Origin: Psychromonas sp. L1A2 | Lineage (GTDB): Bacteria > Pseudomonadota > Gammaproteobacteria > Enterobacterales > Psychromonadaceae | Direction: 5' to 3' | Length of the DNA: 64,000 bases | Assembly (NCBI RefSeq): GCF_009828855.1 | Contig: NZ_WUAG01000002.1 | Location: forward strand, 868,001-932,000 | Shown here: positions 7,859 through 50,367 of the stretch, piece after piece | How the letters are laid out: each line of letters opens with the position of its first letter | How positions within the stretch are numbered: position 1 is the first letter of the stretch | The notes under the pieces: model-generated | The model's database searches: none | Seen by the model: only the letters and a program-made list of their open reading frames with translations | What the model was told of the DNA's origin: nothing | Translations under genes and position numbers: made by a program

Positions 7859-8232
7859 GCCTTTAGAAGCAACCCAAATGCGATATCGTTATTAAGTTAG
7901 TATTCATCTTCAACTTGATTATAGGGCTAGGGACAAGACAGCCTTTAGAAGCAGCCCAAATGCAATGCCGTTATTAAGTTAGTGTTCATCTTCAATTCCA
8001 CTATTATGATAGGGCTACGGGACAGGACAGCCTTTAGAGGCAACCCAAATACGATATCGTTATTAAGTTAGTATTCATCTTCTATTCTACTATTAAGGTA
8101 GAACTACGGGACAAGACAGCCTTTAGAGGCAACCCAAATGCAATGCCGTTATTAAGTTAGTGTTCATCTTCAATTCTACTATCATGATAGGGCTACGGGA
8201 CAGGACAGCCTTTAGAGGCAACCCAAATACGA
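7859..8232 (-). repeat. Tandem array of aldo/keto-reductase 3'-end duplicates
   Basis: Units beginning GCCTTTAGARGC recur at 7859, 7941, 8030, 8119 and 8208 (spacing 82, 89, 89, 89 bp). The last lies inside the aldo/keto reductase CDS. On the reverse strand each unit repeats the gene's last codons (RIWVASKGCPVP, stop) plus downstream DNA. Units alternate between two variants, giving a 178-bp higher-order period: 7941 resembles 8119, and 8030 resembles 8208. Homology with the gene stops near 8231. There are no spacers, so this is not a CRISPR array. Confidence 0.9.
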
Positions 8233-9101
8233 TACCACTGCTCTGTCGTCATTTTTAATGTTAATGCTGCAACGACATTATGTACCCGAGTAATTTTACC
8301 TGAACCAATTAATGCAACCGGTTTTGATGGATGCTTAAGTACCCAAGCAAAGATAACCTGCGTAATAGAAGTCGCACCAGTCTCTTTAGCCACTTCTTTT
8401 AAGCAGCTACATAATCGTGAAATTTGCGGACTTTGCTCATTAAAAATAGCACCACCAGCTAAACATGACCATGCCATCGGACGTACGCGATATTCCTGCA
8501 ATTGATCTAATACGCCATTTTCAATGTTATGTGTATTGATTTGATTTATTTCAACTTGGTTAGTAATTAATGGTTTATCTAAGCGGGATTGTAAAAGAGA
8601 GAATTGAGAAGGTGTAAAATTTGAGACGCCAAAATGGTCGACTTTACCAGAACGCTTCAACTCATAAAAAGCCGCTGCAACTTGGTCTGCATTCATCAAA
8701 AAGTCAGGCCTATGCACTAACAATGCATCTAGTTTTTCAACGCCTAATCGACGTAATGAATTCTCTGTAGAAGTAATAATTGCTGCTTTGCTACTATCGT
8801 AATGCGATACACGCTTTTCGTTAGGTGAGGAAGCAATGCCATTAATACCAAACTTAGAAATAATTTCAATTTTGTCCCGCATGCTAGGATCTAGCTTTAA
8901 TGCTTCACCGAATAACATCTCACTATTGCCATAGATTGCCGCATTATCAACAGTACTAATACCAAGTTCTAGATGTTGTTTTAAAAAAGTGAGGCGAGCT
9001 TGAGGTGACATTCTCCAATCGTTTAATCGCCAATAGCCTTGTATTAATTTAGAAAAAGAAGGTCCTTCAGATGCCATTACCACTTTTTCAACAAAACTCA
9101 T
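8193..9101 (-). CDS. Aldo/keto reductase, YdhF-like
   Basis: NADPH-dependent oxidoreductase with a TIM-barrel fold; natural substrate unknown. I place the start at the ATG at 9101, preceded by TTTTGAGGTATTT (GAGG ribosome site), giving MSFVEKVVMASEGPSF and 302 residues, close to the about 298 of E. coli YdhF; a longer reading would add an unlikely hydrophobic extension. The catalytic tetrad is visible as D and Y in STVDNAAIYGNSE, K in IISKFGI and H in LLVHRPD. The last 13 codons and the stop are part of a tandem repeat array that continues downstream (7859-8192). Confidence 0.88.
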   Translation of the reverse strand: MSFVEKVVMASEGPSFSKLIQGYWRLNDWRMSPQARLTFLKQHLELGISTVDNAAIYGNSEMLFGEALKLDPSMRDKIEIISKFGINGIASSPNEKRVSHYDSSKAAIITSTENSLRRLGVEKLDALLVHRPDFLMNADQVAAAFYELKRSGKVDHFGVSNFTPSQFSLLQSRLDKPLITNQVEINQINTHNIENGVLDQLQEYRVRPMAWSCLAGGAIFNEQSPQISRLCSCLKEVAKETGATSITQVIFAWVLKHPSKPVALIGSGKITRVHNVVAALTLKMTTEQWYRIWVASKGCPVP

Positions 9102-9248
9102 AAATACCTCAAAAATCAAAAGAAAACTGGATAACCACAACAACATCAAAATAACATAAAAAATAAGCATTTACATTCTTTTTGAAAATGAAAAATATAT
9201 ATAATGAGGTATAGGTAACAATATAAAGAAAATCAGTTAAATAGATAA

Positions 9249-9407
9249 TACCAATGGAATTAAATAAGTGATCAGAGATTGCGCAGGAAAAATTAACACT
9301 AATAAGGCGTGAGTTGTAGGAGATAGTTGTTCTCACTTCCAAACTCACAACGCAGTTAGAGGTAATTTTAACCAGCAAGAATGATCACCTTATTAATTCT
9401 TTTGGTA
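9249..9407 (+). repeat. MITE-like element, type B, copy 1
   Basis: A 159-bp element with ends TACCAATGGAATTAAATAAG and CTTATTAATTCTTTTGGTA, flanked by TAA on both sides (9246-9248, 9408-9410). It is nearly identical to the nested copy at 11747-11905, which is also exactly 159 bp. The centre holds an inverted repeat around GTGAGTTGTAG and CTCACAAC. No coding capacity. Confidence 0.87.
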
Positions 9408-9651
9408 TAATGTTCAAACGGCAGAGAAAATGAAATAAAATGAGAAGTAATAAGAAAAAGTAAGCGAAAGAAAAATAGATAACAATATTAGATAAAGGTT
9501 TTCGATTTCTTAATGGTATATCGAGCTTTATCAGGAATAAGGCATTAAAGAAATATGTAGCTAAAAAAATATTTCGCCACATATGAAGCTTAATTAAATA
9601 CAGGACTAAATAACCAAAATCTGAATCATCACTGGCGACTTTAAGAGACTT

Positions 9652-10040
9652 TAATATAAGCAGTCATCGTCGATATTATAATATTCAGTTAAATCAAAAC
9701 GAACAAGCGTATTACTATCGATAGCACCATGATCATCTAATACGTAAACGTTACTGCCATAAACATTACCATAGTCGTTTTTATACTTTACAACTTCAAT
9801 TTAAACGGATCATATGTCGCTATATTATCTATGCTCGTCTCAAAAATACTACCATTGCTTAAATCATCACAAATAAAATATTATTTATGAAAAGTTAGTG
9901 TCTCTCAATTTACAGTTAAAAAATCTACATAACCTTTTCTACATTAGCATAACTTACTTCACCATCTGATTCAGTAGTAAATGCCATAACATCTATAACA
10001 GATAATTGTCCGACAACAACGTACACAGTTTTAACAAAAA
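9652..10040 (-). pseudogene. Decayed gene of unknown function
   Basis: Read on the reverse strand, this stretch gives protein-like segments interrupted by stops and a frame change. One runs VVGQLSVIDVMAFTTESDGE... to an in-frame stop; another runs CDDLSNGSIFETSIDNIA... to about 9800. After a frameshift it continues VYVLDDHGAIDSNTLVRFD... to a stop at about 9652-9654 (final residues NIDDDCLY). Acidic, Asp/Tyr/Ser-rich composition suggests a secreted or surface protein, but I recognise no family. The frame preservation between breaks argues for recent decay. Confidence 0.45.
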
Positions 10041-10087
10041 ATCAGCATCATCGAGTATTAAGACAAGATCTTAGTTTGTTTTAGTTA

Positions 10088-10246
10088 TACCAATCTGGAT
10101 AAATAAAGAGTCTATTTAGGCGTTAGGGAAAATGGATGTTAGCAAGGCGTTGATTGCAGTAACTAGTCTTCTCATTACAAAGTCAACAACGAAGCTAGCA
10201 TTCATTTTAACAAGCATAAATGACGAGATAATGACTTAGACTGATA
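10088..10246 (+). repeat. MITE-like element, divergent type B variant
   Basis: A 159-bp element, the same length as the type B copies, starting TACCAATCTGGATAAATAAA and ending GACTTAGACTGATA. It is flanked by TTA at both sides (10085-10087, 10247-10249). The inner sequence differs substantially from types A and B but keeps the order TACC, AAGGCGTTGA, AACAACGAAG, TTTTAACAAGCA. Right-end divergence (GATA instead of GGTA) suggests an older insertion. Confidence 0.65.
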
Positions 10247-10925
10247 TTAATTTGTATTGAACTTCAACATCACCGTATGAGGCTAATTTATAATAACTTT
10301 CATTTTGAACACAAATAACTTAAGTTTATTAATTCATGTTAATTTTTTAAAACTATTCTCAAAAATTAAATTTTAAATAATGATAAACGTAATTGAGATG
10401 CCAAAAAACTCTCCATCTTAAATACCACTTTAAAAATAAAAGTGGTACATGTAAAAAATATGAAATTTATAACTATACTCAACGGTCTTTAATAAACTAC
10501 CTTTAGTATTTTTTAAAGGTGTATAAAATTTATGAAGAATAATCAAACAATTCAAAACAGCCATTATGCTAAAGCAATCTGAATTGCACAGAGCTAATTG
10601 GACAGAAAGAATTAATTTTATGATAAAAATCAGTTGATTATTTAAGTAGAAAAAACATTGTGTAAGATCTCAGCAAATTATGCTTACAAATATGAGACTA
10701 CAATGACAAAGAAAAGCACGACTGCGTTATCTTAATAGCCAATATGCATATATATAAAACCTATTAATGCTTCTTATGCTTCAACAGGCTTTAGAAAAAT
10801 ACGATGCTTATAGAACAAAAAAGCATTAAAATTATAGGTAAGTAATTAAATTTCGACTAAGCTTTTTAGAAATAATACATTTCTATGTTTGATTTATAAA
10901 AAAACAAAGTTAAAAATGGAGAATA
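10247..10925. other. AT-rich intergenic region before the Tat-MsrB gene
   Basis: About 680 bp with no convincing gene. One perfect hairpin, TACCACTTT-aaaaata-AAAGTGGTA, lies at 10423-10447 without a T-tract on either strand. Scattered short frames lack ribosome sites. The region may hold promoter DNA for the gene at 10926. Confidence 0.5.
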
Positions 10926-11474
10926 ATGATGAAAATAAATATTACAAGACGAAAGTTTCTAACTAGCTCAGCAGTCGTCGCGGTCAGCCAAATAGCGACT
11001 AAAGCGTTTGCAGCAGAGCCCACAACTAAAGCGACGACTGACCAAGTCAGTACGAGTGAAGATTACACATATGAAGTTAATTATACAGATGCAGAATGGA
11101 AGGAACGCCTAACTGAAGCTGAATTTACCATCCTTCGAGAAGGTGAAACAGAAGAAGCAAAAAGTAGCCCACTTTGGAAAGAAAAACGTGAGGGTTTATA
11201 CCACTGTAAAGGCTGTGAATTAACTGTTTATGAATCAAAAGAGAAAACTGTTTTGGATAAAGGGTGGGTTTTCTTCAGACATAGCAAGCCTGATACAGTA
11301 CTCATGGGGATAGATTTGTTCACACATTACAGTCGTGGGGAGCCTAAAGAAGATAAAGTAATGGAATCTCATTGCCGACGTTGTGGTAGTCATTTAGGCC
11401 ATATACTTTATATAAATAAACAGATTCTTCACTGTATCAATGGTACGTCACTTATTTTCAAACCAACAGTTTAG
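10926..11474 (+). CDS. Tat-exported peptide-methionine (R)-S-oxide reductase (MsrB domain)
   Basis: Reduces methionine-R-sulfoxide in proteins, here probably in the periplasm. The N-terminus has a twin-arginine signal, TRRKFLTSS (residues 7-15), then a hydrophobic stretch and AFAA cleavage site near residue 30. The SelR/MsrB domain covers about 50-182: two zinc CxxC pairs (CKGC and CRRC), GSHLGHI, and the catalytic cysteine in LHCINGTSLIF. It has 182 residues. GGAG at 10918-10921 favours the second ATG (10929) slightly over the first by spacing. It is monocistronic and isolated by repeat-rich DNA. Confidence 0.85.
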   Translation: MMKINITRRKFLTSSAVVAVSQIATKAFAAEPTTKATTDQVSTSEDYTYEVNYTDAEWKERLTEAEFTILREGETEEAKSSPLWKEKREGLYHCKGCELTVYESKEKTVLDKGWVFFRHSKPDTVLMGIDLFTHYSRGEPKEDKVMESHCRRCGSHLGHILYINKQILHCINGTSLIFKPTV

Positions 11475-11610
11475 TTATTACAAACCATTAAATACGTATT
11501 CTAATAATTACATAGAAAAAATAAGCGTATACAGATCAAAAGTTTGATTGAGCCCTGAAATCTATGTAATTACCTATCATTAACTTAATGCTATTAAGGA
11601 TAGGTAATTA

Positions 11611-11991
11611 TACCAATCACAATAAATAACTTATCTATTTTGCTTGTTAAAATAGCCCACTTCCTCGTTGTAAATTTCGTAAAGGGAACAGCCATTAAAG
11701 AATTAACTTCTTTTGGTTAATTCTCCGATAGACGATTACGAAGTTATACCAATGGAATTAAATAAATGATCAGAGATTGCGCAGGAAAAATTAGCCCTAA
11801 TAAGGCGTGAGTTGTAGGAGATAGTTGTTCTCGCTTCAAAACTCACAACGCAGTTAGGCAGGATTTTAACCAGCAAGAATGATCACCTTATTAATTCTTT
11901 TGGTATTGATCTTCGACAGGCTCAATTTCCCCCTTGAATTGAACTGTTTTTCCTGCGCAAAATTTAGATAACATATTTAATGTAATCGGTA
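11611..11991 (-). repeat. MITE-like element, type A, copy 3, interrupted by a type B copy
   Basis: A type A element in reverse orientation, with ends TACCAATCACA and TAATCGGTA and TTA flanks on both sides (11608-11610, 11992-11994). It is split at 11746/11906 by a complete 159-bp type B element. Removing 11747-11905 and its target duplication restores GAAGTT(A/G)ATCTTCG, the palindromic centre seen in the intact copy at 6238-6468. Confidence 0.85.
11747..11905 (+). repeat. MITE-like element, type B, copy 2, nested inside a type A copy
   Basis: This 159-bp element is almost identical to 9249-9407: TACCAATGGAATTAAATAAA at the left end and TTAATTCTTTTGGTA at the right. Flanks are TTA and TTG, consistent with a 3-bp duplication carrying one later substitution. 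Its position inside a type A element shows that type B moved after type A had inserted here. Confidence 0.88.
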
Positions 11992-12223
11992 TTACGTAAA
12001 TTAAAAACATAAATGCATAACTTGAATAGGTCGAAAGACAGTACGTTGAATGTATGCTTATTGTTTTACCCAACAAAAGATATTGAGTCTTACGAAAGAA
12101 GTGTTTGATACGAATAGTAGACAAAAATAGCTTGTGAGATTACTTATATTTTAACAATTAGCTTTATATATGTTTCATATTAGCTAATAAGTAAAACCTT
12201 ATATTTTATATTTTTAAAAGCAT

Positions 12224-12257
12224 AAAAAAAATGCTTATCCATTTAAAATGAATAAGC
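12224..12257 (-). terminator. Rho-independent terminator of the porin gene
   Basis: Hairpin TGCTTAT-(C)CAT...ATG(A)-ATAAGCA at about 12232-12257, followed on the reverse strand by an eight-T run (A-run 12224-12231). It lies about 80 bp downstream of the porin stop codon. Confidence 0.75.
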
Positions 12258-12338
12258 AAATTTTATAATTTATTATGGTATCAGTTTTTAATTTTTAACT
12301 TATTAGATAAAAATAACCTGATTTATAATAAACTTATC

Positions 12339-13259
12339 TTAGAAAGAGATTGCCATACCAGCAACATAACCTAACTCAGTATCATCAGCATCAGTACCAC
12401 CAACTTCAAAGTAAGTGTTAACGTTACTGCTAAATGCGTAAGAAGCATTTGCGTAGTATTGGTTGTCATCGCCAGCATTATCTTCATCGATGTTTGCGTA
12501 ACCAACAGCAAGTTGTACTTTTGAGTTAACTTGGTAAGTAGCAGCAAGACCTAAAGAATCGACGTCATTAGCGCCGTCCATATCAGTCGTTGCATAAGCA
12601 GCGGCTAATGTTAATTTGTCAATTGTGTAACGTGCTTCTAAGTTTAAGTTTTTCGTTTCACCGCCACCAGCAAGGTCTGACTCGCCGTAGAATGCAGTTA
12701 AATCAACACCAGAAAAACGAACACCTAATTTACCATCTATAGCACGAAGACCATCGGAATCTTCACCGTTTACAATGTAAGCGATACCACCGTAGTAGTT
12801 ACCTTTATCAACAGTATATTTAATTACTTGTTCACTAGAGGTAGTTTGCTCGTAGAAATCGTTAAAACCAAACTGGTAATCACCACCGATGCCGGCATCA
12901 TCAAAGATAGTAACTTGCTTACCAACTGTTATTGTACCGTATTTACCAGAAGAGAAACCAACGTATGCATCATCAAGTGTTGCGCCGTTGTCATTGTCGT
13001 TACCTGTAATTGATTCAAACGAAATAACACCAATAGCTGCTACATCATCAGTAATGTCGTAAGCTGTTTTTACACCGAAGTTTGCTTCATCAAGCTGGAT
13101 TTTTTTACCTTCGTCTTCATCTAATGTGTTAATAGCTTGCACTTCAACATCACCGTATAGCTCAACAGTGATACCGTCAGCGTCATGCATCGTTGCACTA
13201 TGTGCAGCAGTTGCAGCGAATAAAGAAGTAAGCATTGTTGCTAATATTGTTTTTTTCAT
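12339..13259 (-). CDS. Major outer-membrane porin (gram-negative porin family, OmpU/OmpC-like)
   Basis: Trimeric 16-stranded beta-barrel porin for general diffusion across the outer membrane. It has 306 residues with a clear Sec signal peptide (MKKTILATMLTSLFAATAAHSA, cut after residue 22). ITVELYGDVEVQ is the first strand, KYGTITVGKQ the conserved loop-strand region near residue 105, and the C-terminus GYVAGMAISF ends in the phenylalanine needed for barrel assembly. The mature protein is very acidic (Asp/Glu-rich loops), as in marine porins. It has its own terminator downstream and an approximately 1.4-kb gene-free region upstream. Confidence 0.92.
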   Translation of the reverse strand: MKKTILATMLTSLFAATAAHSATMHDADGITVELYGDVEVQAINTLDEDEGKKIQLDEANFGVKTAYDITDDVAAIGVISFESITGNDNDNGATLDDAYVGFSSGKYGTITVGKQVTIFDDAGIGGDYQFGFNDFYEQTTSSEQVIKYTVDKGNYYGGIAYIVNGEDSDGLRAIDGKLGVRFSGVDLTAFYGESDLAGGGETKNLNLEARYTIDKLTLAAAYATTDMDGANDVDSLGLAATYQVNSKVQLAVGYANIDEDNAGDDNQYYANASYAFSSNVNTYFEVGGTDADDTELGYVAGMAISF

Positions 13260-14646
13260 TTTCCATCACCTTGTGGCTATTGATAATAATAATTGAGTCC
13301 TTAAATACTTAAATACTTTTAGCGTTAACAACGCGTCACAGTGTTTTAAGCGCAAAATAAAATTACCACACAAAACTGAAGGCGGAAATAGGAAACGCAG
13401 TTATATGACGAAACATCACATAAAAATCGACACTAAAGAAAAGCATTGTGATCTAGGTCCCAAAAAAAGATGGAATTAAATAAGGAATTAGGCGGTCAAT
13501 GCTGCATTTTTTTATTTTTTAGAGGAAAAATAGACTAAATATTGAACTTTATTAGTATTACTAATAGCTGTATGGACTAAGAAAAAAGAAAAAAAGCGTT
13601 GTTTACGTATAAAGCTCATAAAAAGATCAGTCGTTTAGCACTCATATTTACTCAAAAATCTTTATACAATCGCTTTTTTTAGTCGTTTTAATTAACGAGT
13701 TTAAGTAGAAATGAGATATCAAAGACTCCTTCTATTAACGATAAAAATTATTAGCGGAGGTATATTGCTAATTATTTTCTTCGATATACCCAGGCATTAA
13801 TTGTTCTTTTAAAATGTATGCATCACGAGAGGAACATTTCCAGACACTAAAATTATTTTAACTAAATTAATGAATAGTTAGCGTAAAACACTTTTTACTA
13901 TTCTTCCTGATACTTTTCTTCTCCTTCTTTACATATATCCGCTGCAAAACTCAGTAAAATGAACAGGTTCTAGGTAACAAGGGTTCGCTCAATTCATTTA
14001 CTCATGAGCCTAGACTTTAATCATGTAGTTAAAGAATAGACAGAACGACAAAAAACACCAACTTTGTATTTGTTCAGCCTTTTACACTAACCTTTCTGGT
14101 AGGCCCTCAAAATGAAACTTGGATTGACATCAGATAAACAACAGTAAAGCCAGCCAGCTATCTATGGTTACACAATGTGATTAAAGAGTTGATATAGGTT
14201 GTTGGTGATGTATTTTAGGTGTGATGGGGAGAAAGATTGCTCTACATTATTTTGAAATGTAATTTGACTACGCTCATCTTTTCATGTTGCCATATTGATA
14301 TTTATTAACAGCGTTTCTCCCTGGCAGCAACTCTACTTTTTCTTATCAGGAAAAAACATTTACCTACAACACGCAAAAAAGATTGAACAGGATACACAGA
14401 GCTTAATCCGCTCCTAGGGCGATGCTGTGGCATAATCACCACTGCCCCCAATCAATGCCTTCATTTTAAACAACTCGTTTCGAACGCTCATCAATGCAGT
14501 AGCCACATTGAGTTTCATTCAAGTGCAGATTTCATCTATAGACAAAAGGTAATCTCTCCCCCTAAGAGCCTTAATCGCTAAGCAAATAATCCCCTTTTAT
14601 CTTTTAGCATTAAGAGTTATCGCTCTCTTCGATTAAAGATGCTTTA
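13260..14646. other. Long intergenic region upstream of the porin; possible gene remnant at 14410-14590
   Basis: About 1.4 kb without an intact gene. Near the porin start (13380-13460) it holds the likely promoter. At 14410-14590 the reverse strand reads about 57 codons with one stop: LAIKALRGRDYLLSIDEICT, stop, then MKLNVATALMSVRNELFKMK and ALIGGSGDYATASP. This may be the trace of a decayed gene, possibly a transposase, but the match is too short to name. The remainder shows nothing I can support. Confidence 0.35.
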
Positions 14647-16924: not shown

Positions 16925-18553
16925 ATGTTCAAATCTTCCAGTAAAGATAAAGAGCTTAAGGTCTACCAAGCGAATTCTTTTTATAACTATACCCTTGGTT
17001 TTGATTCTGCAAGTATCGACTTACTAAAAACAGCTGAAAAATTTCTTAAAGAAGGAATTTCCACATCGGTCTTCTTTTCTGATTTTAATTGCATCTATAT
17101 TGATAACTCTGGAACTAAGAAGTATGAATTACTTTCCCAAACTGGCAATGATTTTACCCCAAATGAAGGGATGCCAAAATCGGTAGTTTCAGATTTACAC
17201 TACGCTTCAAAAATGGCTTTCCATGAAAAGCAAATTAAAAATGAAGAGTCTTCATATTTCCGTACTTTTTTACCTCCTATACTTTTAGATAATGACGAAT
17301 ATAAACTTCCTATTTTTGCATCTTTAAAGGTATATTCAGATGGTATTGGAATACTTAGTTTTCAACTTGATGCGTCATGGGATGGATTAGGTGAAAGTGA
17401 GTTTTTATCTAAAATTGTAAATATATTTAAGTACTATTTTAAATCAATATGGATAGATTCTCGTTTACAAAAACTTGATGCAAAAGCCCTTTTACATAAT
17501 ATACACGAAGATAGTTTTTTAAATGGAAAAACATATTTAACTAAATGGAAAATTAAACAACTTATAAAGAAAAACAAACAAGAAACTGAGAAACTTCTTA
17601 CCGAATCTCTACAAAATAAAGGAAATATTTTTGAATTTGGTGATGACCATGGTAGTTGGGTATTACACCAAATTGTGGGGACTGAAAAAAATAAATTTGC
17701 AGAACTTACAATAGAGTTATGTCGATCCATATATTGTAATGCGATCTGTAGTTTAATAGTAAATGGGAAAAATGAAATAAATAGCCCATTCAAACAGCTT
17801 ATGTGGCAAGGCCGCCCATCAATAACATTGCTGCGTTTCAAAAATCAACCTGACAATAAAGAAGAATTATACGATAATTTTTCTCATTCCATATCAAAAA
17901 TTCTTTTTCGAGCAGATAAAATAACAAAACGACCAGAACGCCCCCGAGACCTAAGATTCATTGATGACTTCTGCTTACATGGCAATAGAGCAATACTATT
18001 ATCTACGTGGTTAAAGTCGAAGAATAGTCCTATAGATGCTTGGGAAGATCCTAATACTGCTTCTATGATTTTTGCAGGTCAAGCAAGAACAGAGTTAATA
18101 GAATACTATAATTTAAAGATTGCAAGAGCATGTGCTTGGGCTCAGAATCCACAAAGTAATGAACACTTACTTTATGCTTATAAGATTCTTGCAAGCTCTG
18201 ATAACATCATTCATCAAAGCAGTAATGCAGGAGAAATTGTAGATTCCTTGTCTTACCTTATGGGAAAATTCGGAACCACCGGATTAATTAACTCTGGTAA
18301 AGAGTCTGCAAAATATTACCTTGATGAATTAAAATACAACACTGATAAAATAAAAAATAAGAACGATAGAACTCTCACCTTCATTTTCGGATTAGTAGGT
18401 GCAGCAAGTCTTGCACAATTTGCCGTTCACCCTTTAGTTAAAGAGACTTGGCCATTATTAAATGATGTTGTTACGCCTTTCGTCTCTTTTGGAATTTCAG
18501 GTATAACACTAATTTTATTAACAAAAATCCTTTCATTTATAAATAATAAATAA
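16925..18553 (+). CDS. Uncharacterised 542-residue protein with a C-terminal membrane hairpin
   Basis: I do not recognise the family. About 480 mainly cytosolic residues are followed by two predicted TM helices: TLTFIFGLVGAASLAQFAVH (about 483-505) and FVSFGISGITLILLTKILSF (about 518-538). The cytosolic part is rich in Lys, Ser and Asn and has no obvious nucleotide-binding or nuclease motif. No signal peptide. It is a single gene without partners, adjacent to a tRNA cluster and flanked by repeat elements, and looks AT-richer than the core genes nearby, so horizontal acquisition is plausible. Large soluble domain plus membrane hairpin is an architecture seen in some abortive-infection effectors, but that is only an analogy. 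Confidence 0.75.
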   Translation: MFKSSSKDKELKVYQANSFYNYTLGFDSASIDLLKTAEKFLKEGISTSVFFSDFNCIYIDNSGTKKYELLSQTGNDFTPNEGMPKSVVSDLHYASKMAFHEKQIKNEESSYFRTFLPPILLDNDEYKLPIFASLKVYSDGIGILSFQLDASWDGLGESEFLSKIVNIFKYYFKSIWIDSRLQKLDAKALLHNIHEDSFLNGKTYLTKWKIKQLIKKNKQETEKLLTESLQNKGNIFEFGDDHGSWVLHQIVGTEKNKFAELTIELCRSIYCNAICSLIVNGKNEINSPFKQLMWQGRPSITLLRFKNQPDNKEELYDNFSHSISKILFRADKITKRPERPRDLRFIDDFCLHGNRAILLSTWLKSKNSPIDAWEDPNTASMIFAGQARTELIEYYNLKIARACAWAQNPQSNEHLLYAYKILASSDNIIHQSSNAGEIVDSLSYLMGKFGTTGLINSGKESAKYYLDELKYNTDKIKNKNDRTLTFIFGLVGAASLAQFAVHPLVKETWPLLNDVVTPFVSFGISGITLILLTKILSFINNK

Positions 18554-18578: not shown

Positions 18579-18618
18579 AAACTCAATATGGCTACGATCT
18601 GCCTCCCGTTGAGTTTTT
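18579..18618 (+). terminator. Possible terminator of the 542-aa gene
   Basis: Inverted repeat GAAACTCAA (18579-18587) and TTGAGTTTTT (18609-18618) with a 21-nt loop, ending in five Ts, 25 bp after the stop codon. The long loop lowers confidence. Confidence 0.5.
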
Positions 18619-18731
18619 CTGAATCAATCACTGACTTCAGCAAGCAGAGGCATGGATGCCGTTGCTAGCTCAGTTCGAGACATGGATGTCGAGTCTGAGC
18701 GGTGTGTTAAGAAGACAGTGATTGATTCAGA
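18618..18731. repeat. 114-bp inverted-repeat element with CATGGATG hairpins
   Basis: Ends are a 21-bp inverted repeat with one mismatch (18618-18638 and 18711-18731, core CTGAATCAATCACTG / CAGTGATTGATTCAG). Inside are two perfect small palindromes, GGCATGGATGCC (18650-18661) and CGAGACATGGATGTCGAG. I believe similar CATGGATG elements are scattered in marine gammaproteobacterial intergenic DNA. Only one copy is present in this window. Confidence 0.65.
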
Positions 18732-18753
18732 TTAAAAAACGAATTGGGAGCCA

Positions 18754-18884: not shown

Positions 18885-18980
18885 TAGTCGGAGATAGAAA
18901 ATTCGAACCTAAAAACCAACCCTCTGCTCCACTCTTTATAAAAACCATGGAGATGCGCTACCAAACTGCGCTAATCACCG
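18885..18980 (-). pseudogene. Degenerate tRNA-Pro copy (unit 4)
   Basis: A 96-nt reverse-strand sequence that keeps the tRNA-Pro 5' half (CGGTGATTAGCGCAG, D-arm) and the TTCGAAT T-loop. The anticodon arm is replaced by a longer arm with stem CTCCA/TGGAG and a loop of about 16 nt. Acceptor pairing is weakened (CGGTGAT against ATCTCCG) and the terminal CCA has become CTA. Removing the IS630 element, it lies 179 bp from unit 3. Confidence 0.75.
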
Positions 18981-19048: not shown

Positions 19049-20158
19049 TACCATTCCGCCTAATTATGTGATCTAATGTATTTAATTATTAACTGATTAT
19101 ATTCTCTTGGTGACGTATGAAAAAACATGATTTTTCTGAATTGGCCAAAACACATAAAAGTGTTCGTATGAGACTGCGTTATTCTGCTCTAGCGCACTTT
19201 CAAGAAGGCAACTCTCGTACCGATATCGCTAAATTTCTTAAAGTGAGCCGTACTAGTGTTAATAAATGGATATCTCAATATCATCAAAATGGATTGGATG
19301 GATTAATTGATAAAAAGATAACTGGACGTCCCTTACGATTATCTGAAATCCAATCACTTCAACTAATTCAATATATTAATGAATATACAAAAAATGATAA
19401 GGGTGGCCGATTAGTAGGCACTGATATCCAGTTGTTTATTGCTGATAATTTTGGCCATCAATACCACCTTTCAAGTGTCTACAAATTACTTCACCGTTTA
19501 GGTTTTTCATGGATAACCTCTCGCTCTAAGCACCCAAAACAGTCCCTTGAAGTTCAAGAAGATTTTAAAAAAATTCCAAATAAAAATGATCCTTAAGATC
19601 CCTGGCCATATCTCATTAGATAGAGTCGATATCTGGTTACAAGATGAAGCACGTTTTGGACAACAAAATACAACAACAAAGCTATGGGCTAAAACAGGTA
19701 GCAGACCATTAGCTGTGAAACAGCAACAGTTTGAATATGCATATTTATTTGGCTCCGTTTGTGTCACTAATGGGCAATCACAAGCGATGGTAATGCCTTA
19801 TGTAAATAAAGACATTATGTATGCTCACCTGAAACAAATATCCATGAGTACCGCCGAAGATCGGCATGCAGTCATTATTATGGATGGGGCTGGTTGGCAT
19901 ACAGAAGATCTTGCGACAGACTTTAATAATGTTAGCGTAATTAAGCTTCCTCCGTACTCTCCAGAACTAAATCCGATAGAACAAGTGTGGAGCTGGTTGC
20001 GTCAACATCATTTAGCTAATCGTTGTTTTAATGGTTATGAGTCAATTGTGGATGCGGTTTGTTATGCATGGAATGACTTTGTAAGTGATAGTCAAAGAGT
20101 AATAAAAATGTGCACTAGGGATTGGATGAATCTGATCAACTAATTAGGCGGAATGGTA
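19049..20158 (+). mobile_element. IS630-family insertion sequence
   Basis: A 1110-bp element with 18-bp perfect terminal inverted repeats TACCATTCCGCCTAATTA (19049-19066) and its complement (20141-20158), with partial similarity continuing to about 30 bp (TGATC). TTA flanks both ends (19046-19048, 20159-20161). It interrupts the terminator hairpin (GCCGCAATATT...AATATTACGGC) behind degenerate tRNA-Pro unit 3; the intact hairpin is seen behind unit 2. It carries one transposase gene, split by a frame change. Confidence 0.93.
19117..20143 (+). pseudogene. IS630-family transposase, frame broken at an A7 run
   Basis: DDE transposase. The first frame (19117-19596) holds the helix-turn-helix DNA-binding part (FLKVSRTSVNKWISQYHQNG). 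The second (to 20143) holds the catalytic core: D in WLQDEARFG, D in IIMDGAGWH and E in LNPIEQVWSWL. At 19567-19573 there are seven As. Dropping one A joins EDFKK to FQIKMILKIPGH and gives a single 341-residue protein, the family's normal size. The copy is therefore either inactivated by a one-base insertion or rescued by polymerase or ribosome slippage on A7. Confidence 0.85.
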
Positions 20159-20175: not shown

Positions 20176-20272
20176 TGGTCGGTGATAGAGGATTCGAACC
20201 TAAAAACCAACCCTCTGCTCCAACTCTTTATAAAAACCATGGAGATGCGCTACCAAACTGCGCTAATCACCG
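20176..20272 (-). pseudogene. Degenerate tRNA-Pro copy (unit 3)
   Basis: A 97-nt reverse-strand sequence with intact acceptor stem (CGGTGAT/ATCACCG), encoded ACCA end and D-arm. The anticodon arm is replaced by CTCCA...TGGAG enclosing about 18 nt, and the T-stem is partly lost (TTTTTAGG against CCTCT) while TTCGAAT remains. Its downstream terminator is split by the IS630 element. It is nearly identical to unit 4, including 60 bp of 3' flank. Confidence 0.8.
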
Positions 20273-20313: not shown

Positions 20314-20344
20314 AAAAAGCCGCAATACTTTTCAGTATTGCGGC
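20314..20344 (-). terminator. Terminator behind degenerate tRNA-Pro unit 2
   Basis: GCCGCAATACT-TTTC-AGTATTGCGGC (20319-20344) is a perfect 11-bp stem, with a five-A run at 20314-20318 giving U5 on the reverse-strand transcript. Confidence 0.8.
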
Positions 20345-20354
20345 TTTTCTAATG

Positions 20355-20450
20355 TGGTCGGTGATAGAAGATCCGAACCTAAAAAACCACCCTCTGGTCC
20401 AACTTTTTATGAAACAATGGAGATGCGCGACCAAACTGCGCTAATCACCG
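20355..20450 (-). pseudogene. Degenerate tRNA-Pro copy (unit 2)
   Basis: A 96-nt reverse-strand sequence starting 148 bp downstream of the true tRNA-Pro. Acceptor stem and ACCA end are intact. GGACCAGAGGG of the original anticodon 3' strand survives, but its 5' partner is replaced by CTCCATTGTTTCATAAAAAG. The T-arm has TTCGGAT instead of TTCGAAT. A proline anticodon loop can no longer form. Confidence 0.8.
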
Positions 20451-20476: not shown

Positions 20477-20512
20477 GAAAAAATCCGCTTAACTCTAAGA
20501 GCTAAGCGGATT
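20477..20512 (-). terminator. Terminator of the argX-hisR-proM tRNA operon
   Basis: Perfect 10-bp stem AATCCGCTTA / TAAGCGGATT (20482-20512) followed on the reverse strand by a U-run (A-run ending at 20481), 10 bp after tRNA-Pro. Confidence 0.85.
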
Positions 20513-20521: not shown

Positions 20522-20598
<77 letters not shown>

Positions 20599-26054: not shown

Positions 26055-26312
26055 TAAAACCAGCTCATTTATATAATTTAAGAAAAGGGTATTTTATGTT
26101 GTTAAGCTATAGATGCAAACGATCAATAAAAGTTCCCAACAATTTACGCTCATATTATTTATTATCAGTTATATTACTTTTGTCACTTGCGTAAGTTGAC
26201 TCTAAATTGTACAATCTGCCGCCTTAAATCAGCCACCCTTTTTGTTCCTTGCTTCTATTGGTACGGCTGAGCCAAATTAAGAAGCTACTAACCCGTAAGG
26301 AGCGATTTTTAT

Positions 26313-26720
26313 ATGCGTCATTATGAAATCGTATTTATGGTTCACCCAGATCAGAGTGAACAAGTTAATGGTATGATCGAGCGTTACACTACTTCTATCA
26401 CAGAAGCTGGTGGTACTGTTCATCGTCTAGAAGACTGGGGCCGTCGTCAACTGGCTTACCCAATCAACAAACTACACAAAGCACACTATGTTCTTATGAA
26501 TATTGAAGCTGAGCAAAAAGTAATCGATGATTTGGAAACTGCTTTCCGTTTCAACGATGCTGTGATCCGTAACATGATCATGCGTACTAAATCTGCTGTA
26601 ACTGAAGCATCTGTAGTGGCTAAAGCAAAAGAAGAACGTGTTGAACGTGCTCCTCGTGCTCCACGTCCAGATTTTGATGCTGCACCAGCTGCGCCTGCTG
26701 CAACAGAAGCTGAAGCATAA
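26313..26720 (+). CDS. rpsF: 30S ribosomal protein S6
   Basis: Ribosomal protein of the central domain of the 30S subunit, binding S18. [18 protein letters not shown] and the motif [19 protein letters not shown] (residues 49-67) are diagnostic. 135 residues with an Ala/Pro-rich tail. Strong ribosome site TAAGGAG upstream. First gene of the rpsF-priB-rpsR-rplI operon. Confidence 0.98.
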
Positions 26721-33789: not shown

Positions 33790-34140
33790 TTATTTAGCAG
33801 CACATGGGTTTTTAGCAGCACATGGGTTTTTAGCAGCACATGGGTTTTTAGCAGCACATGGGTTTTTAGCAGCACATGGGTTTTTAGCAGCACACGGGTT
33901 TTTAGCAGCACATGGGTTTTTAGCAGCACACGGGTTTTTAGCAGCACATGGGTTTTTAGCAGCACACGGGTTTTTAGCAGCACACGGGTTAACCACTTTA
34001 GTCACCTTAGCTGAACAAGGCGAACAAAAATCATCGAAATCAGCACCACCACAGCTTGCATATGCTGGGTTAATAGTTAAAGCAGCAGTAAAGATACCAG
34101 CAGCGATAATAGCAGGTTTGTTTTTTAATATTTTTTTCAT
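33790..34140 (-). CDS. Exported low-complexity protein with 11 NPCAAK repeats
   Basis: 116 residues. Residues 1-28 form a signal peptide (TINPAYA cleavage site), then CGGADFDDFCSPCSAK adds three cysteines, and residues 51-116 are eleven perfect copies of NPCAAK encoded by an 18-bp tandem repeat (33793-33990). Copies differ only at the proline codon (CCA or CCG), so the repeat is being kept in frame or is very young. One cysteine every six residues suggests metal binding in the periplasm. I cannot name the family; no neighbours offer context. Confidence 0.75.
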   Translation of the reverse strand: MKKILKNKPAIIAAGIFTAALTINPAYASCGGADFDDFCSPCSAKVTKVVNPCAAKNPCAAKNPCAAKNPCAAKNPCAAKNPCAAKNPCAAKNPCAAKNPCAAKNPCAAKNPCAAK

Positions 34141-42968: not shown

Positions 42969-43198
42969 TATTAATAAAAAATGACTTGGTCATATTTTAA
43001 ATCGATTTATAATGTGACCAAGATTAAACATAACCAGTCTTAAATTTTCCTCTCTAAGAAACCGCCTAAATACGAATGATTATTACCCACACTTTTTTAA
43101 ATAGCATTTAGTTATAAAAGAGTAACTTTTATTCTTTTGTGTTAATTATAAGCTCGCGTAAACTGCATCTATCTTAATGTAATAGCGGAAATTACTTC

Positions 43199-44995: not shown

Positions 44996-46686
44996 TGAGC
45001 CAGAAATTACACGACAACGAACGCATTAAAATTGAAAGTAATTATCTTCGCGGTAACTTAGTAGAAGGAATTAACGATACAACAACAGGCTCATTTCATC
45101 CTGATGAAGTACAGCTCGTTAAATTCCACGGTCTATACCAACAAGACCACCGTGATCTGCGTGCTGAACGTAAGCAACAAAAACTAGAACCGTTATATTC
45201 GTTCTTGTTACGAGCTCGTTTACCTGGTGGTGTTGTAACACCTGAACAATGGTTAGAGATCGATCGTATTGCTGAAGAATTAACTGATGCAGGTAGTATC
45301 CGTATTACCACACGTCAAACGTTCCAATACCACGGTATCTTTAAACGTAATTTAAAATCAGTATTCCAAGAATTGAAATTCAAAGCGAATATCGATTCTA
45401 TTTTTACGGCGGGTGATGTAAACCGTAATACTATTTGTACGTCTAACCCTGAGCAATCTGAATTGCACACAGAAGTGTATGAGCTTTCTAAAAAGTTAAG
45501 TGAACACTTCTTACCAAAATCAAATGCTTATGCAGAGATTTGGTTAGATGGCGAAAAAGTATTAGATACGGTAGAAGAAGAGCCTATCTACAAGAATATT
45601 TTCTTACCACGTAAATTTAAAATTGCTGTGGCATTACCGCCGTACAATGATGTTGATATTCATGCCAATGATCTTAACTTCATTGCCATCATTGAAGATG
45701 ACAAAATCACTGGTTATAACGTGGTTGTTGGTGCTGGTTTAGGTATGACACATGGCGATAAAACAACGTTCCCACGTCTAGGTGATGACTTTGGTTTTAT
45801 TACTGTAGATAAAGTAATGGAAGTAGCTGAAGCAGTAGTAACAACACAACGTGACCTAGGTGGTCGTGTTAGTCGTTCACATGCTCGTACTAAATATACG
45901 CTTGAAACACACGGTATCGAAACCTTCAAGAAAGAAGTTGAGAAACGTGCTGGTATTGCTTTTGCAGCACCCGGTGCTTACGAGTTCACAGAACGTGGCG
46001 ACCGTATCGGTTGGGTTAAAGGTATCGATAACAAATGGCACCTAACCGTGTTCATTGAGAATGGTCGTATCCTAGACTTTGATGGCAAACCATTAAAATC
46101 AGGTTTAGTAAAAATTGCAAAAGTACACCAAGGTACTTTCCGCATGACAGCGAACCAAAATCTAGTAATCGCAAGTGTGCCAGAATCTGAAAAAGACAAC
46201 ATTGAAAAATTAGCACGTGAGTGTGGGTTAATTGATGATGGTACAAGTGGTCAACGTCTTGATTCTATGGCATGTGTTTCTTTACCAACGTGTCCGCTAG
46301 CAATGGCAGAAGCTGAACGTTATTTACCAAGCTTAACCGACGATGTTGAAGGCTTATTAGCTAAGCACGGCATTGCAAAAGACCATATCATCCTGCGTAT
46401 TACAGGCTGTCCAAATGGTTGTGGTCGTGCGATGTTAGCGGAAGTTGGTTTAGTGGGTAAAGCGCCTGGTCGTTATAACCTGCATTTAGGTGGTAACCGT
46501 ATCGGTACGCGTATTCCTAAAATGTATGCTGAAAATATTGATGAAGCAACGATCGTCAGTACACTAGATGAATTAATCGGTCGCTGGGCAACAGAGCGTG
46601 ACCAAGATGAAGATTTTGGTGACTTTGTTATTCGCGCAGGCATTATTTCTGAAGTAGTTGTTGCGGCTAGGGATTTCTATGCCTAA
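44995..46686 (+). CDS. cysI: Sulfite reductase hemoprotein, beta subunit
   Basis: Siroheme-[4Fe-4S] enzyme that makes sulfide in the cytoplasm. 563 residues: two ferredoxin-like and siroheme-binding repeats, with the cluster cysteines in [16 protein letters not shown] (about 426-441) and [10 protein letters not shown] (about 471-480), and substrate arginines in the [10 protein letters not shown] region (about 103). It overlaps cysJ by 1 bp and cysH by 8 bp. Confidence 0.98.
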
Positions 46687-47443
46687 CACCTTAGTTCTAG
46701 ACCATCTATTAACACTTTCTAAAGCAGAGCAAAAAATCGCTCTCGCTGAAGTTAATACGTTATTAGAAACAAAGACAGCTCAAGAGCGTGTCCAATGGGC
46801 AGTCGAGAATTTAGAAAGTGAATTTGTTTTATCATCAAGCTTTGGAATACAAGCTGCTGTATGTTTGCATATGATCACAGCGGTCAAAGCTGATACACCT
46901 ATTATTTTGACGGATACAGGATACTTATTTCCTGAAACCTATCAATTTATTGATGATTTAACAAAGCAACTTAACTTAAACCTAAAAATTTACAGTGCAC
47001 AGCACAGTCCAGCATGGCAAGAAGCTCGTTATGGTAAATTATGGGATCAAGGCGTAGATGGTTTAACTAAGTACAATTTGATCAATAAAGTTGAGCCAAT
47101 GAAACGTGCATTGAAAGAATTAAATGCTAAAACATGGTTCTCTGGTTTACGTCGTTCACAATCATCAAGTCGTGAAGACTTGCCGGTTTTAAGCATTCAA
47201 AATAACTGCTTTAAATTTTTACCGATTATCGACTGGAGTAACAAAGAAGTACATTACTACCTAGAAGAAAACGGTTTAAGTTACCATCCATTATGGGAGC
47301 AAGGTTATGTCTCAGTAGGCGATGTACAAACATCACGCCCACTTGAATTAGGCATGAGTGAAGAAGAAACACGCTTCTTTGGCTTAAAACGTGAATGTGG
47401 ATTACACGAAGATCCAATTGAAGAACAAGGTAGTGGTATTTAA
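46679..47443 (+). CDS. cysH: Phosphoadenylyl-sulfate (PAPS) reductase
   Basis: Reduces PAPS to sulfite with thioredoxin. I take the ATG at 46679 ([10 protein letters not shown]), which overlaps the end of cysI; 254 residues. ATP-PPase-like [10 protein letters not shown] (P-loop), [21 protein letters not shown], and the catalytic cysteine in RECGLHEDP near the C-terminus. The lack of the second CC pair marks the PAPS-using, non-iron-sulfur form. Confidence 0.97.
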
Positions 47444-47480
47444 TTACTTTCAATATTGATTAAATAAAATTGCTATAAAC

Positions 47481-47510
47481 AGCCTCTAATAATATTAGGG
47501 GCTTTTTTTT
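47481..47510 (+). terminator. Terminator of cysJIH
   Basis: AGCCTCTAAT-AAT-ATTAGGGGCT (one G-T pair) followed by TTTTTTTT, about 38 bp after cysH. Confidence 0.9.
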
Positions 47511-47607
47511 GCCTGTTTTTTACTTAAGAAAAAAGGTGACTTGCCGATAACTTAATATCAATGACTATAATGAATATTTTGATAAAGCATCAAAGCCAAG
47601 GGTTTAT

Positions 47608-48231
47608 ATGAAAAAAATAATACAATCACTACTAATATTTAGTTTATTAAATAGCGTAACAGCGATTGCTGAAGATTATGAAGTGATACAGGTATATACC
47701 CAAGATGAACTCAATTCGCTGATTAAAAAAAATAAGCATTTACAAAGAGTAAAAGCAGATGATTGCCAATTAGTACAAGATATCAAAGCGCATGCACTGA
47801 AGATACAAGAACCCTCTTACGTATTTTTATGGGGTGATATGCTTGCTTGGGGCGTTTGTGTAGAGCGTGATGCAACGTTAGGCATGTATTATATAGATCA
47901 AGCTGCTAAACAAGGTTTATTGGCAGCGATAGAACAATTAGGGCGTTATTACAATAACGGTACTTTGGTTATTAAAGACAAAGATAAAGCCACAAGGTAT
48001 TTCAGAGAAGCCGCATTGCAAGGTTACTTACCTGCAAAAATTAGTTATATCAAATTACTAGATCAAGGTTACGGCAGTCCACTTGATTATGAAGATGCAT
48101 ACAGGGCTTTAAATAGCAGCGTCATTGTAAATCCAAAAACCAAAAAAGAAGCGGAAAGATTATTAGCTAAATTAGCTAAAAAAATGCCTGGCTACGCCAT
48201 TGCCAATGCACGAAAAAATTACAACGATTAA
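47608..48231 (+). CDS. motX: Sodium-type polar flagellar motor protein MotX
   Basis: Component of the T-ring beneath the outer-membrane collar of the Na+-driven polar flagellum; with MotY it helps recruit the PomA/PomB stator. 207 residues: signal peptide (1-21), VYTQDELNSLIKKNKHLQRVKADDCQL (in parts, 29-55), then Sel1-like repeats (about 75-160) and the distinctive DQGYGSPLDYEDAYRAL. This pattern closely fits Vibrio MotX. It lies apart from other flagellar genes, as is usual for motX. Ribosome site AAGGG. Confidence 0.9.
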   Translation: MKKIIQSLLIFSLLNSVTAIAEDYEVIQVYTQDELNSLIKKNKHLQRVKADDCQLVQDIKAHALKIQEPSYVFLWGDMLAWGVCVERDATLGMYYIDQAAKQGLLAAIEQLGRYYNNGTLVIKDKDKATRYFREAALQGYLPAKISYIKLLDQGYGSPLDYEDAYRALNSSVIVNPKTKKEAERLLAKLAKKMPGYAIANARKNYND

Positions 48232-48539
48232 CTTATCACTTGAATTCAAGCTTTATAAAATCGAGTCTTATTACCAGAAGAAGTTAAAACAATAGCAATA
48301 TAAATAAACAAAAATGCCCCTGTAAATAATCGCTATCTTTAACTCGTTATTATCATTTTTATTCATTTGACTTTATTTAATGTTTTAATGTCAAATCTAG
48401 AGTCCCTAAAAGCCTCTCTAATACAAAAGCAAGACACTACCCTGCACTTGACCATCTTCACACACAAAACCTACAAGAGTAGCTTTCTCTATTATTTTTA
48501 GTATTAAAATTCCATCATTTACAACGCCACTAACGAATC

Positions 48540-49870
48540 CCCTCCCCTTGACTGATATTTTTAGCTTGCAGTGTTTTGACTTTCAGGGCGCATGGCGAAT
48601 TAGGCACTGCCTAGTTTTATGAGCGGAGGAGCTCTGCGAGTCCTGTTTTCAGCTTGCAGATCTTTTTTGTGTTGATTGTTGGATAGATTATTCAATTAAT
48701 CATTCATGTTACAAAGATCAAAAAATAAACCCTAACACCAGAAACCCTGCAGGCTAAAGCCAGCGCCCCAAAGTCAAAAGTGGTTTACCACGAAGGTACG
48801 AAGGGTGAAGAAGGTTAGAGCAAAAGCGATTAATCATAAGTAATGAATTAGAGCTTTTCTTCGTGCCCTTCGTGTAGCGTAGCGCTTCGTGGTTATTTTG
48901 GTGCTTTCAAGTAAAAGATCGATAATCAAAACTATTGATTTAAATTATGTTGTTTAGGTGCGCATGGCGAATTAGGCGATAGCATAGTGTTATGAACGGA
49001 GGAGCTCTGCGAGTCCTGTTTTCAGCTTGCAGTATTTTAACTTTCGGGGCGCATGCTTCAGCTTGCAGATCTTTTTTGTGTTGATTGTTGGATAGATTAT
49101 TCGATTAATCATTCATGTTACAAAGATCAAAAAATAAACCCTAACACCAGAATCCCTGCAGGCTAAAGCCAGCGCCCAAGGTCACAAGCGGTTTACCACG
49201 AAGGTACAAAGGGTGAAGAAGGTTAGGCCAAAAGCAATTAATAACAAGTAATGGATTATAGCTTTTCTTTCGTGTCCTTCGTGTAGCGTAGCGCTTCGTG
49301 GTTATTTTGGTGTTTTCAAGTCAAAAGCTGACATTCGGAGCTAGGAAGCTGAATCGTGTTGATTGTTTGACAGATTATTCGATTGATCATTCGTGTTACA
49401 AAGATCAAAAAATAAACCCTAACACCAGAATCCCTACAGGCTAAAGCCAGCGCCCCAAAGTCACAAGCGGTTTACCACGAAGGTACGAAGGGTGAAGAAG
49501 GTTAGAGCAAAAGCGATTAATCATAAGTAATGAATTAGAGCTTTTCTTCGTGCCCTTCGTGTAGCGTAGCGCTTCGTGGTTATTTTGGTGCTTTCAAGTA
49601 AAAGATCGATAATCAAAACTATTGATTTAAATTATGTTGTTTAGGTGCGCATGGCGAATTAGGCGATAGCCTAGTGTTATGAACGGAGGAGCTCTGCGAG
49701 TCCTGTTTTCAGCTTGCAGTGTTTTAACTTTCGGGGCGCATGCTTCAGCTTGCAGATCTTTTTTGTGTTGATTGTTGGATAGATTATTCGATTCATCATT
49801 CATGTTAAAAGATCAAAAAATAAACCCTAACACCAGAATCCCTGCAGGCTAAAGCCAGCGCCCCAAGGTC
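48540..49870 (+). repeat. Left cluster of ACCACGAAGG-type repeats
   Basis: Three tandem-like units of roughly 280-450 bp. Each combines GCGCATGGCGAATTAGGC..., AGCTCTGCGAGTCCTGTTTT, AACACCAGAATCCCTGCAGG, GGCTAAAGCC palindromes, and the long inverted-repeat core from TTTACCACGAAGGTACGAAG to CTTCGTGTAGCGTAGCGCTTCGTGG. Cores start near 48788, 49193 and 49475. The same family occurs in reverse orientation at 56570-59460. No coding capacity; flanks of motX and tuf. Confidence 0.85.
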
Positions 49871-49883
49871 AAAAAATAAAAGA

Positions 49884-50367
49884 GTAGAAACAACACCAGC
49901 ACCTACATGCACTTGGTATAGCGCCACCTTCGCGGATTACGAAATGGAGACTTTCAACTTTTCTACAGGCATAAAAAAAGAGAGCCTAAGCTCTCTTTTT
50001 TTAATATTGTTTAACTAAAAACGTGTAATTATAAATTACGCGATGATAGTAGAAACAACACCAGCACCTACATGCACTTGCTATAGCGCCACCTTCGCGG
50101 ATTGCGAAATGAAGACTTTTAACTTTTCTTACAGGCATAAAAAAAGAGAGCCTAAGCTCTCTTTTTTGAATATTGTTTAACTAAAAACGTGTAATTATAA
50201 ATTACGCGATGATAGTAGAAACAACACCAGCACCTACATGCACTTGGTATAGTGCCACCTTCGCGGATTGCGAAATGGAGACTTTTAACTTTTCTTACAG
50301 GCATAAAAAAAGACAGCCTAAGCTGTCTTTTTTGAATATTGTTTAACTAAAAACGTGTAATTATAAA
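49884..50367 (-). repeat. Tandem array of tuf 3'-end plus terminator duplicates
   Basis: Units of about 166 bp anchored on TTACGCGATGATAGTAGAAA recur at 50368 (the real tuf stop), 50202, 50036, and a truncated one from 49884. Each copy holds the last 60-70 bp of tuf, in which CGTACTGTT is replaced by a segment able to form the small hairpin TGCACT...AGTGC(C)A, then a terminator (AGAGAGC...GCTCTCT or AGACAGC...GCTGTCT with A/T tails). All copies share the tuf reading direction. Confidence 0.92.
50304..50333 (-). terminator. Terminator of tuf (first of three repeated terminators)
   Basis: AGACAGC-CTAA-GCTGTCT (50311-50328) with a seven-A run on the left giving U7. Near-copies with stem AGAGAGC/GCTCTCT lie at about 50145-50162 and 49979-49996 in the repeat units. 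Confidence 0.88.

What the first reader, a model, noticed from the sequence alone, without database searches (positions are those of the whole stretch)
7859..50367. Same design at three loci: tandem duplication of a gene's 3' end
An oxidoreductase gene, a tRNA gene and tuf, otherwise unrelated, each have 3-4 extra downstream copies of their 3' end, unit 82-179 bp (178 bp twice), in gene orientation. In tRNA-Pro and tuf a short internal segment is replaced by a hairpin-forming one and every unit ends in a terminator. Three cases in 50 kb are unlikely by chance. A dedicated process may capture 3' ends, for example reverse transcription of terminated transcripts or a satellite-like element that needs a gene end as its left part. 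This is the best candidate here for an undescribed system.
Basis: inference. Interest (0 to 1): 0.75.

Follow-up and report, generated by a model that had tools for sequence, protein, structure and literature searches.

The report
tRNA-linked-repeat-type arrays, also behind tuf
In this bacterium the ends of several translation operons are followed by rows of defective copies of the last gene's end, often with their own stop signals for transcription; this matches an unexplained repeat type of E. coli, here seen in more operons and also behind the protein gene tuf.

Summary
The three arrays exist but are not one undescribed capture system. Two (tRNA-Pro, tuf) fit a wider pattern: 11 of 33 tRNA loci of this genome hold degenerate tRNA copies (35 downstream, 3 upstream, 6 between genes, 0 on the opposite strand). 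Three genus relatives, a Shewanella, a Marinobacterium and E. coli tyrT show the like, as do some 5S rRNA ends and tuf in 13 of 20 genus loci. This is the layout of E. coli's tRNA-linked repeats (TLRs: 22 at ten loci, no known function; PMC8144298), so the kind is known. New within my searches: a protein gene (tuf) as host, up to 13 units, and wider spread. Protein-gene ends in general show no excess (342 ORFs) and no RVT_1 reverse transcriptase was found in this genome, so the capture idea fails. The oxidoreductase array lacks terminators and looks separate. Terminators are kept in many tRNA copies (27 of 59 tested, against 17 of 600 random windows). I favour tandem duplication at strongly transcribed operon ends, kept partly as back-up terminators. 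Hairpin-forming inserts: not supported (2 of 42).

The parts
50368..51588 (-). tuf (EF-Tu), source of the tuf array
   Evidence: Pfam GTP_EFTU domains; that it ends the str operon is inferred from the neighbouring ORFs
50305..50334 (-). terminator of tuf itself
   Evidence: hairpin plus T-run
50202..50288 (-). tuf 3'-end copy 1, replaced segment about 50235-50254; own terminator at about 50139-50169
50036..50122 (-). tuf 3'-end copy 2; own terminator at about 49975-50003
49883..49956 (-). tuf 3'-end copy 3, truncated before its terminator
20522..20598 (-). tRNA-Pro (TGG), last gene of an Arg-His-Pro tRNA cluster
   Evidence: ARAGORN and Rfam
20477..20511 (-). terminator after tRNA-Pro
20355..20450 (-). 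degenerate tRNA-Pro copy 1 (7 nt of the anticodon arm replaced by 21 nt); own terminator at about 20314-20346 with a different stem
20176..20272 (-). degenerate tRNA-Pro copy 2; its terminator stem is split by the IS630-type element
19050..20158 (+). IS630-type element (HTH and DDE_3 ORFs 19117-19596 and 19547-20143) inserted in the array; ends approximate
18885..18980 (-). degenerate tRNA-Pro copy 3, beyond the IS element, without an intact terminator
8193..9170 (-). aldo/keto reductase gene, source of the AKR array
   Evidence: Pfam PF00248
7859..8237 (-). AKR array: 4.4 tandem units of about 89 bp holding the last 45 nt of the gene plus about 45 nt of 3' flank; no terminator seen; judged a separate case

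Best explanation
The tRNA-Pro and tuf arrays are repeats of the tRNA-linked-repeat (TLR) type. The end of a strongly transcribed translation operon (last gene or its 3' part, trailer and terminator) was duplicated in tandem; units were then gained and lost by recombination. One loop of the gene-derived part is altered in the copies, which presumably stops them from acting as tRNA. Many copies stay because each adds a terminator in series, which stops polymerases that run past the first one. Shown here: layout, direction, recurrence in the genus, differing copy number between species, terminator retention and unlike but paired terminator stems. Inferred: the duplication mechanism, that read-through reaches the copies, that the altered loop is inactivating, and that back-up termination is what is selected. 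The oxidoreductase array is a separate, lineage-specific tandem duplication.
For: 11 of 33 tRNA loci of this genome have degenerate copies (35 downstream, 3 upstream, 6 between genes, 0 opposite strand); 9 of the 33 have downstream ones. Relatives: G005 7 of 15 sampled loci, G008 2 of 16, G022 3 of 16. Shewanella xiamenensis 5 of 20 sampled, Marinobacterium stanieri 3 of 20. tuf copies at 13 of 20 genus loci, eight in G008. Terminator-like hairpins score 22 or more in 27 of 59 downstream copies against 17 of 600 random AT-rich windows. Neighbouring units carry unlike but well-paired stems in window tRNA-Pro, tRNA-Phe of G000 and of G005, and tRNA-Pro of G005. E. coli TLRs lie in tRNA and rRNA operons, share 18-19 bp with the gene end, and three lie between dual terminators and are transcribed by read-through (PMC8144298: abstract, introduction, passages).
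Against: Units of one array are not independent (13 of the 59 come from one array, 8 each from two others), and the random-window control is not matched to operon ends. Six of 16 arrays have no copy at 22 or more (G000 Gly, Ser and one Pro locus, G005 Asp and Gly, G008 fMet), though that Pro locus has strong ones at other anchors; five of the eight G000 Phe copies have none nearby. In Shewanella copies are not mainly downstream (3 down, 2 up, 3 between), and some G000 copies are 5' parts only (Lys, Asn/Gly loci). Some 5S ends carry inverted copies. Back-up termination does not explain why the gene-like part stays recognisable, nor why fMet inserts look alike in distant genera. No transcript data.
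Confidence: 0.5

Rival explanations
1. The units are small-RNA genes: read-through transcripts are cut at the gene-like end and yield short RNAs whose level follows growth rate.
For: E. coli RrA/RrB/RrF are transcribed between dual terminators and bind Hfq and CsrA in vitro (PMC8144298, abstract and introduction). The internal segment is alike across species at tuf and the fMet insert across genera.
Against: That paper reports only modest effects of deletion or overexpression. No covariation test of unit structure was done here. Of six usable copies folded, one (window tRNA-Pro copy 2) is clearly more stable than shuffles (z -2.9), one Gly copy less so (z -1.8) and four are not (its seventh input was a wrong chimera). 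Rfam RtT hits only the E. coli control among 9 sources.
Confidence: 0.2
2. Neutral decay: tRNA operons expand by tandem duplication, and extra partial copies simply rot.
For: Many tandem tRNA genes in the same loci; last units often look the most degraded; copy number differs between species; copies also occur upstream and between genes.
Against: Terminators are kept well above background, with unlike but paired stems; internal segments are alike between species.
Confidence: 0.25
3. A dedicated capture process (reverse transcription of ended transcripts, or a satellite element needing a gene end).
For: Some inserts are shared between loci: 5S-linked and tRNA-Pro T-arm segments match dispersed intergenic repeats of the window (0 to 2 of 500 shuffles against the better of two reference stretches), and the tRNA-Pro anticodon insert resembles the fMet insert in reverse (0 of 1000 shuffles for three of six Pro inserts).
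Against: No RVT_1 match in this genome; ORF ends in general show no excess; units hold sequence past the terminator; no viral contig holds the pseudo-fMet pattern; the fMet/Pro likeness rests on a palindromic core and was tested after it was seen.
Confidence: 0.04

Closest known systems
E. coli tRNA-linked repeats (TLRs), including the tyrT/tyrV repeats (RtT, Rfam RF00391; rttR)
   Same: Downstream of tRNA or rRNA genes, same strand, unit ends in a copy of the gene's 3' end; in tyrT the T-loop holds a long insert (my reading); found by the same scan (3 downstream copies, 1 between).
   Different: Here up to 13 units, partly full-length tRNA copies, also behind tuf; different inserts; no Rfam RtT match in 8 sources.
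E. coli RrA, RrB, RrF (TLRs between the dual terminators of rrnA, rrnB, rrnD)
   Same: 5S 3'-end copy beyond a first terminator; rrn ends of relatives G005 and G008 have repeat units with 5S-like ends.
   Different: Several units of about 200-270 bp, inverted 5S copies as well, inserts of a local dispersed repeat family. In this genome BLAST found no direct copy behind the 3 rrn ends read; by eye L264 has one degenerate copy.
tRNA fragments left by integrating elements (attR)
   Same: A tRNA 3' part lies downstream of the intact tRNA.
   Different: 5' and 3' halves are often both present, in tandem, with units too close for element genes between.

Membership tests
tRNA-linked repeats (TLR) | Lies directly downstream of a tRNA or rRNA gene, same strand | tested here: met
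   Met by the window tRNA-Pro array and by 7 more of the 33 tRNA loci (first copy within about 180 bp); a ninth locus, L069, has its copy 1.6 kb away. Not met by tuf and AKR, whose host gene codes for protein.
tRNA-linked repeats (TLR) | 18-19 bp of the unit's 3' end identical to the 3' end of the upstream gene | tested here: met
   Checked in the window only: tRNA-Pro copy 1 shares 18 contiguous bp spanning the gene end (14 in the tRNA, 4 beyond), copy 2 shares 34; copy 3 fails; tuf copies 1 and 2 share over 60 bp.
tRNA-linked repeats (TLR) | Match to the E. coli RtT model RF00391 | tested here: not met
   Only E. coli tyrT matched (4 units); none of the other 8 sources given did, nor the window. 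RF00391 covers one TLR type only.
tRNA-linked repeats (TLR) | Transcribed by read-through and processed (shown for three E. coli rrn TLRs) | not testable with these tools
   No transcript data.
Reverse-transcription-based capture | Reverse transcriptase in the genome or linked to the arrays | tested here: not met
   0 RVT_1 matches in G000; no association in 20 genomes. Only PF00078 was searched.
Integrative-element attachment remnants | Mobile-element attP carrying the same tRNA segment | tested here: inconclusive
   0 viral contigs with the pseudo-fMet pattern; only this pattern was tried.

The most novel reading that the evidence does not exclude
TLR-type units are a general, selected device at the ends of translation operons (tRNA, 5S rRNA, tuf) in Gammaproteobacteria: growth-rate-coupled transcripts in which gene-end mimics with altered loops act in trans, for instance as decoys for tRNA- or mRNA-processing factors, with stacked terminators setting the dose. 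The recurrent CTCTT-N-ATAAA-type insert of fMet copies would be its working part.
Probability: 0.15. Interest if true: 0.75.

Novelty: new variant of a known kind. Interest (0 to 1): 0.42.

Why it matters
The paper I read says TLRs, first described in 1978, have no known function (PMC8144298, introduction). A genome with such copies at 11 of 33 tRNA loci and behind tuf, in a genus where presence and copy number differ between species, gives natural replicates for testing what they do, and the tuf case suggests that a tRNA or rRNA host is not needed. It also shows that tandem repeats behind translation genes are not placed at random here.

Tried and rejected
Reverse transcription and viral carriage: see rivals. 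A general excess of 3'-end copies at protein genes: absent. Inserts as self-contained hairpins: 2 of 42. A single insert motif for all loci: fMet and Pro anticodon inserts resemble each other in opposite orientation, but the core is palindromic and most other inserts (Gly, Ser, tuf of G000 and G003, E. coli Tyr) do not match; the test was made after the likeness was seen, on inserts I picked. The E. coli Tyr inserts did not match the Psychromonas dispersed repeat either. The strict pseudo-fMet pattern as a common trait: 2 of 369 class genomes, one being this genome. Of the 43 stretches of the genome-contig scan, seven are titled as archaeal and their inserts look like ordinary tRNA introns (my reading), two (L152, L161) are anticodon-arm duplications, Microbulbifer, Saccharospirillum and two unnamed bacteria (L146, L166) do not fit the motif, and L169 was not shown by my script. 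Literature: in searches I saw no title on the point and read none of the papers; 68, 74 and 75 led to PMC8144298 (74 also lists an editorial that I did not read).
Full report
What was claimed. Three gene ends in the window (an oxidoreductase, tRNA-Pro, tuf) were said to carry 3-4 tandem copies of their 3' end, and a dedicated capture process was suggested.

What is there. Tandem Repeats Finder gives an 89/178-bp array at 7854-8236 and a 166-bp array at 49883-50404; it does not list the more divergent tRNA-Pro copies, which are plain on reading. The oxidoreductase is an aldo/keto reductase; the third gene is EF-Tu. The tRNA-Pro array has three copies, the third separated by an IS630-type element that sits in the stem of the second copy's terminator. 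The tuf array has three copies, the last truncated.

Is it more than chance, and is it about 3' ends? In the window plus 20 random 20-kb bins, the last 70 nt of 342 ORFs were compared with 250 bp downstream: only tuf and the reductase stand out; at the loosest cut-off 8 were seen against 6.0 expected, and 5' ends gave 10 against 8.7. An earlier version with 329 ORFs and 790 bp gave 6 hits: these two, one dispersed intergenic repeat (L080) and three matches of 18-20 bp; the 5' control gave 3 and the opposite strand 1. Outside the window the 400 kb hold tandem repeats of period 40 or more in two bins only: four places (five rows) in L080, which look like the dispersed family, and one in L086. 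So the ends of protein genes are not captured in general.

tRNA operons are different. All 33 tRNA loci found in this genome were read (and the window). Eleven hold degenerate tRNA copies: 35 downstream of the last tRNA (9 loci), 3 upstream, 6 between genes, none on the opposite strand. Arrays include at least nine fMet copies, eight Phe, three Leu, three Gly. Not every copy is a 3' end: in the Lys locus and partly in the Asn/Gly locus only 5' parts are matched. In genus relatives: G005 7 of 15 sampled loci (13 downstream), G008 2 of 16 (16 downstream, 13 of them Pro copies at about 117 bp), G022 3 of 16 (4 downstream, 1 upstream, 2 between). In other genera: Marinobacterium stanieri 3 of 20 (7 downstream, 3 between), Shewanella xiamenensis 5 of 20 (3 downstream, 2 upstream, 3 between), so the downstream rule is weaker there. 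The genus of the window is probably Psychromonas: I recognise the length of G005 as that of P. ingrahamii from memory; no call states it.

tuf in the genus. Of 20 tuf loci fetched (of 24 genomes), 13 have copies at E<=1e-4 and 7 have none; three loci hold under 450 bp of flank, and the G001 case is a 39-nt match. As far as I could read them, 11 of the 13 share a recognisable replaced segment, G001 was not seen, and G008 has eight copies without it, so that array is likely of separate origin.

Terminators. With a simple score, 27 of 59 downstream tRNA copies reach 22 or more, against 17 of 600 random AT-rich windows; at 26 it is 18 against 5. The 59 (of 68; nine left out) lie in 16 arrays and are not independent; ten arrays have at least one such copy, six have none at these anchors. 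The random windows are not matched to operon ends. Neighbouring units often have unlike but paired stems: window tRNA-Pro, tRNA-Phe of G000 and G005, tRNA-Pro of G005. I take this as a sign that pairing matters; paired change by replication error at palindromes is not excluded. Five of the eight G000 Phe copies have no terminator nearby.

Inserts. In fMet copies of Psychromonas, Shewanella, Parashewanella, Vibrio, Acinetobacter, Marinobacterium, Neptuniibacter, Osedax symbionts, Catenovulum, Motilimonas and Paraferrimonas the segment after CTCA reads roughly RCTCTT-N-ATAAA (consensus by eye). The tRNA-Pro T-arm segment and the 5S-linked segments match dispersed intergenic repeats of the window at about 48.96-49.03 and 58.82-58.90 kb (0 to 2 of 500 shuffles). 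The E. coli tyrT unit and the segment behind rrfB share a GTTGC-containing core in a local alignment, without a shuffle control. Inserts alone do not fold better than shuffles.

5S rRNA ends. Seven were read (G000 three, G005 three, G008 one). BLAST found a direct copy in one (L269) and inverted copies in two (L269, L270), besides a 16-nt inverted match in L265; repeat analysis of L267, L269 and L270 shows units of about 200-270 bp with 5S-like ends and repeated terminators. By eye L264 of this genome has one degenerate copy with an insert.

The oxidoreductase array. Twenty of 24 genus genomes match the gene, and no other genome matched the array part of the query; in the closest two (G009, G023) I see by eye what may be one degenerate copy after the stop. 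It shows no terminator and belongs to no translation operon as far as I can tell. I treat it as a local tandem duplication.

What is known. A 2021 paper on E. coli (PMC8144298; I saw abstract, introduction and passages) describes tRNA-linked repeats: 22 at ten loci in tRNA and rRNA operons, each with 18-19 bp of its 3' end identical to the upstream gene's end, first described in 1978, no known function; three lie between dual terminators and give short RNAs that bind Hfq and CsrA in vitro. My scan finds the E. coli tyrT case as a control. The window's tRNA-Pro array meets the two layout features; tuf meets the second but not the first, hence 'new variant'. That tuf-linked or Psychromonas TLRs are unreported rests only on searches in an open-licence library.

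Verdict. A known but unexplained repeat type, here unusually rich and extended to tuf. Mechanism most likely tandem duplication at strongly transcribed operon ends with back-up termination as the benefit (0.5); neutral decay (0.25) and sRNA genes (0.2) remain; a capture machine is unlikely (0.04).

Noticed in passing
48560-49880 and 56550-58960: Long intergenic arrays of a dispersed repeat (GGCGCTGGCTTTAGCCTGCAGG and GAGCGGAGGAGCTCTGCGAGTCCTG parts); a short core counts 4 in the window and 2 in 400 kb of random bins, and the second part recurs inside repeats behind 5S rRNA and tRNA-Pro.
   Followed up: partly
L267, L269, L270 (rrn ends of G005 and G008): Behind 5S rRNA, repeat units of about 200-270 bp with inverted and 5S-like ends and repeated terminators.
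   Followed up: partly
18604-18747, + strand: TwoAYGGAY RNA motif (73.3 bits) just beyond the last tRNA-Pro copy, next to a 542-aa ORF (16925-18553) without a Pfam match.
   Followed up: no
33793-33990: Eleven nearly identical copies of an 18-bp unit inside a 116-aa ORF on the minus strand (33790-34140).
   Followed up: no
L045 6113-6285, L105 5523-5601 (coordinates in the strand of the tRNA genes): Distant second copies of a tRNA cluster end (Leu-Pro, His-Pro) 2.5-3.5 kb downstream, with other sequence between.
   Followed up: no
26232-26313, + strand: RpsF leader RNA, 43.4 bits against a gathering score of 37.
   Followed up: no
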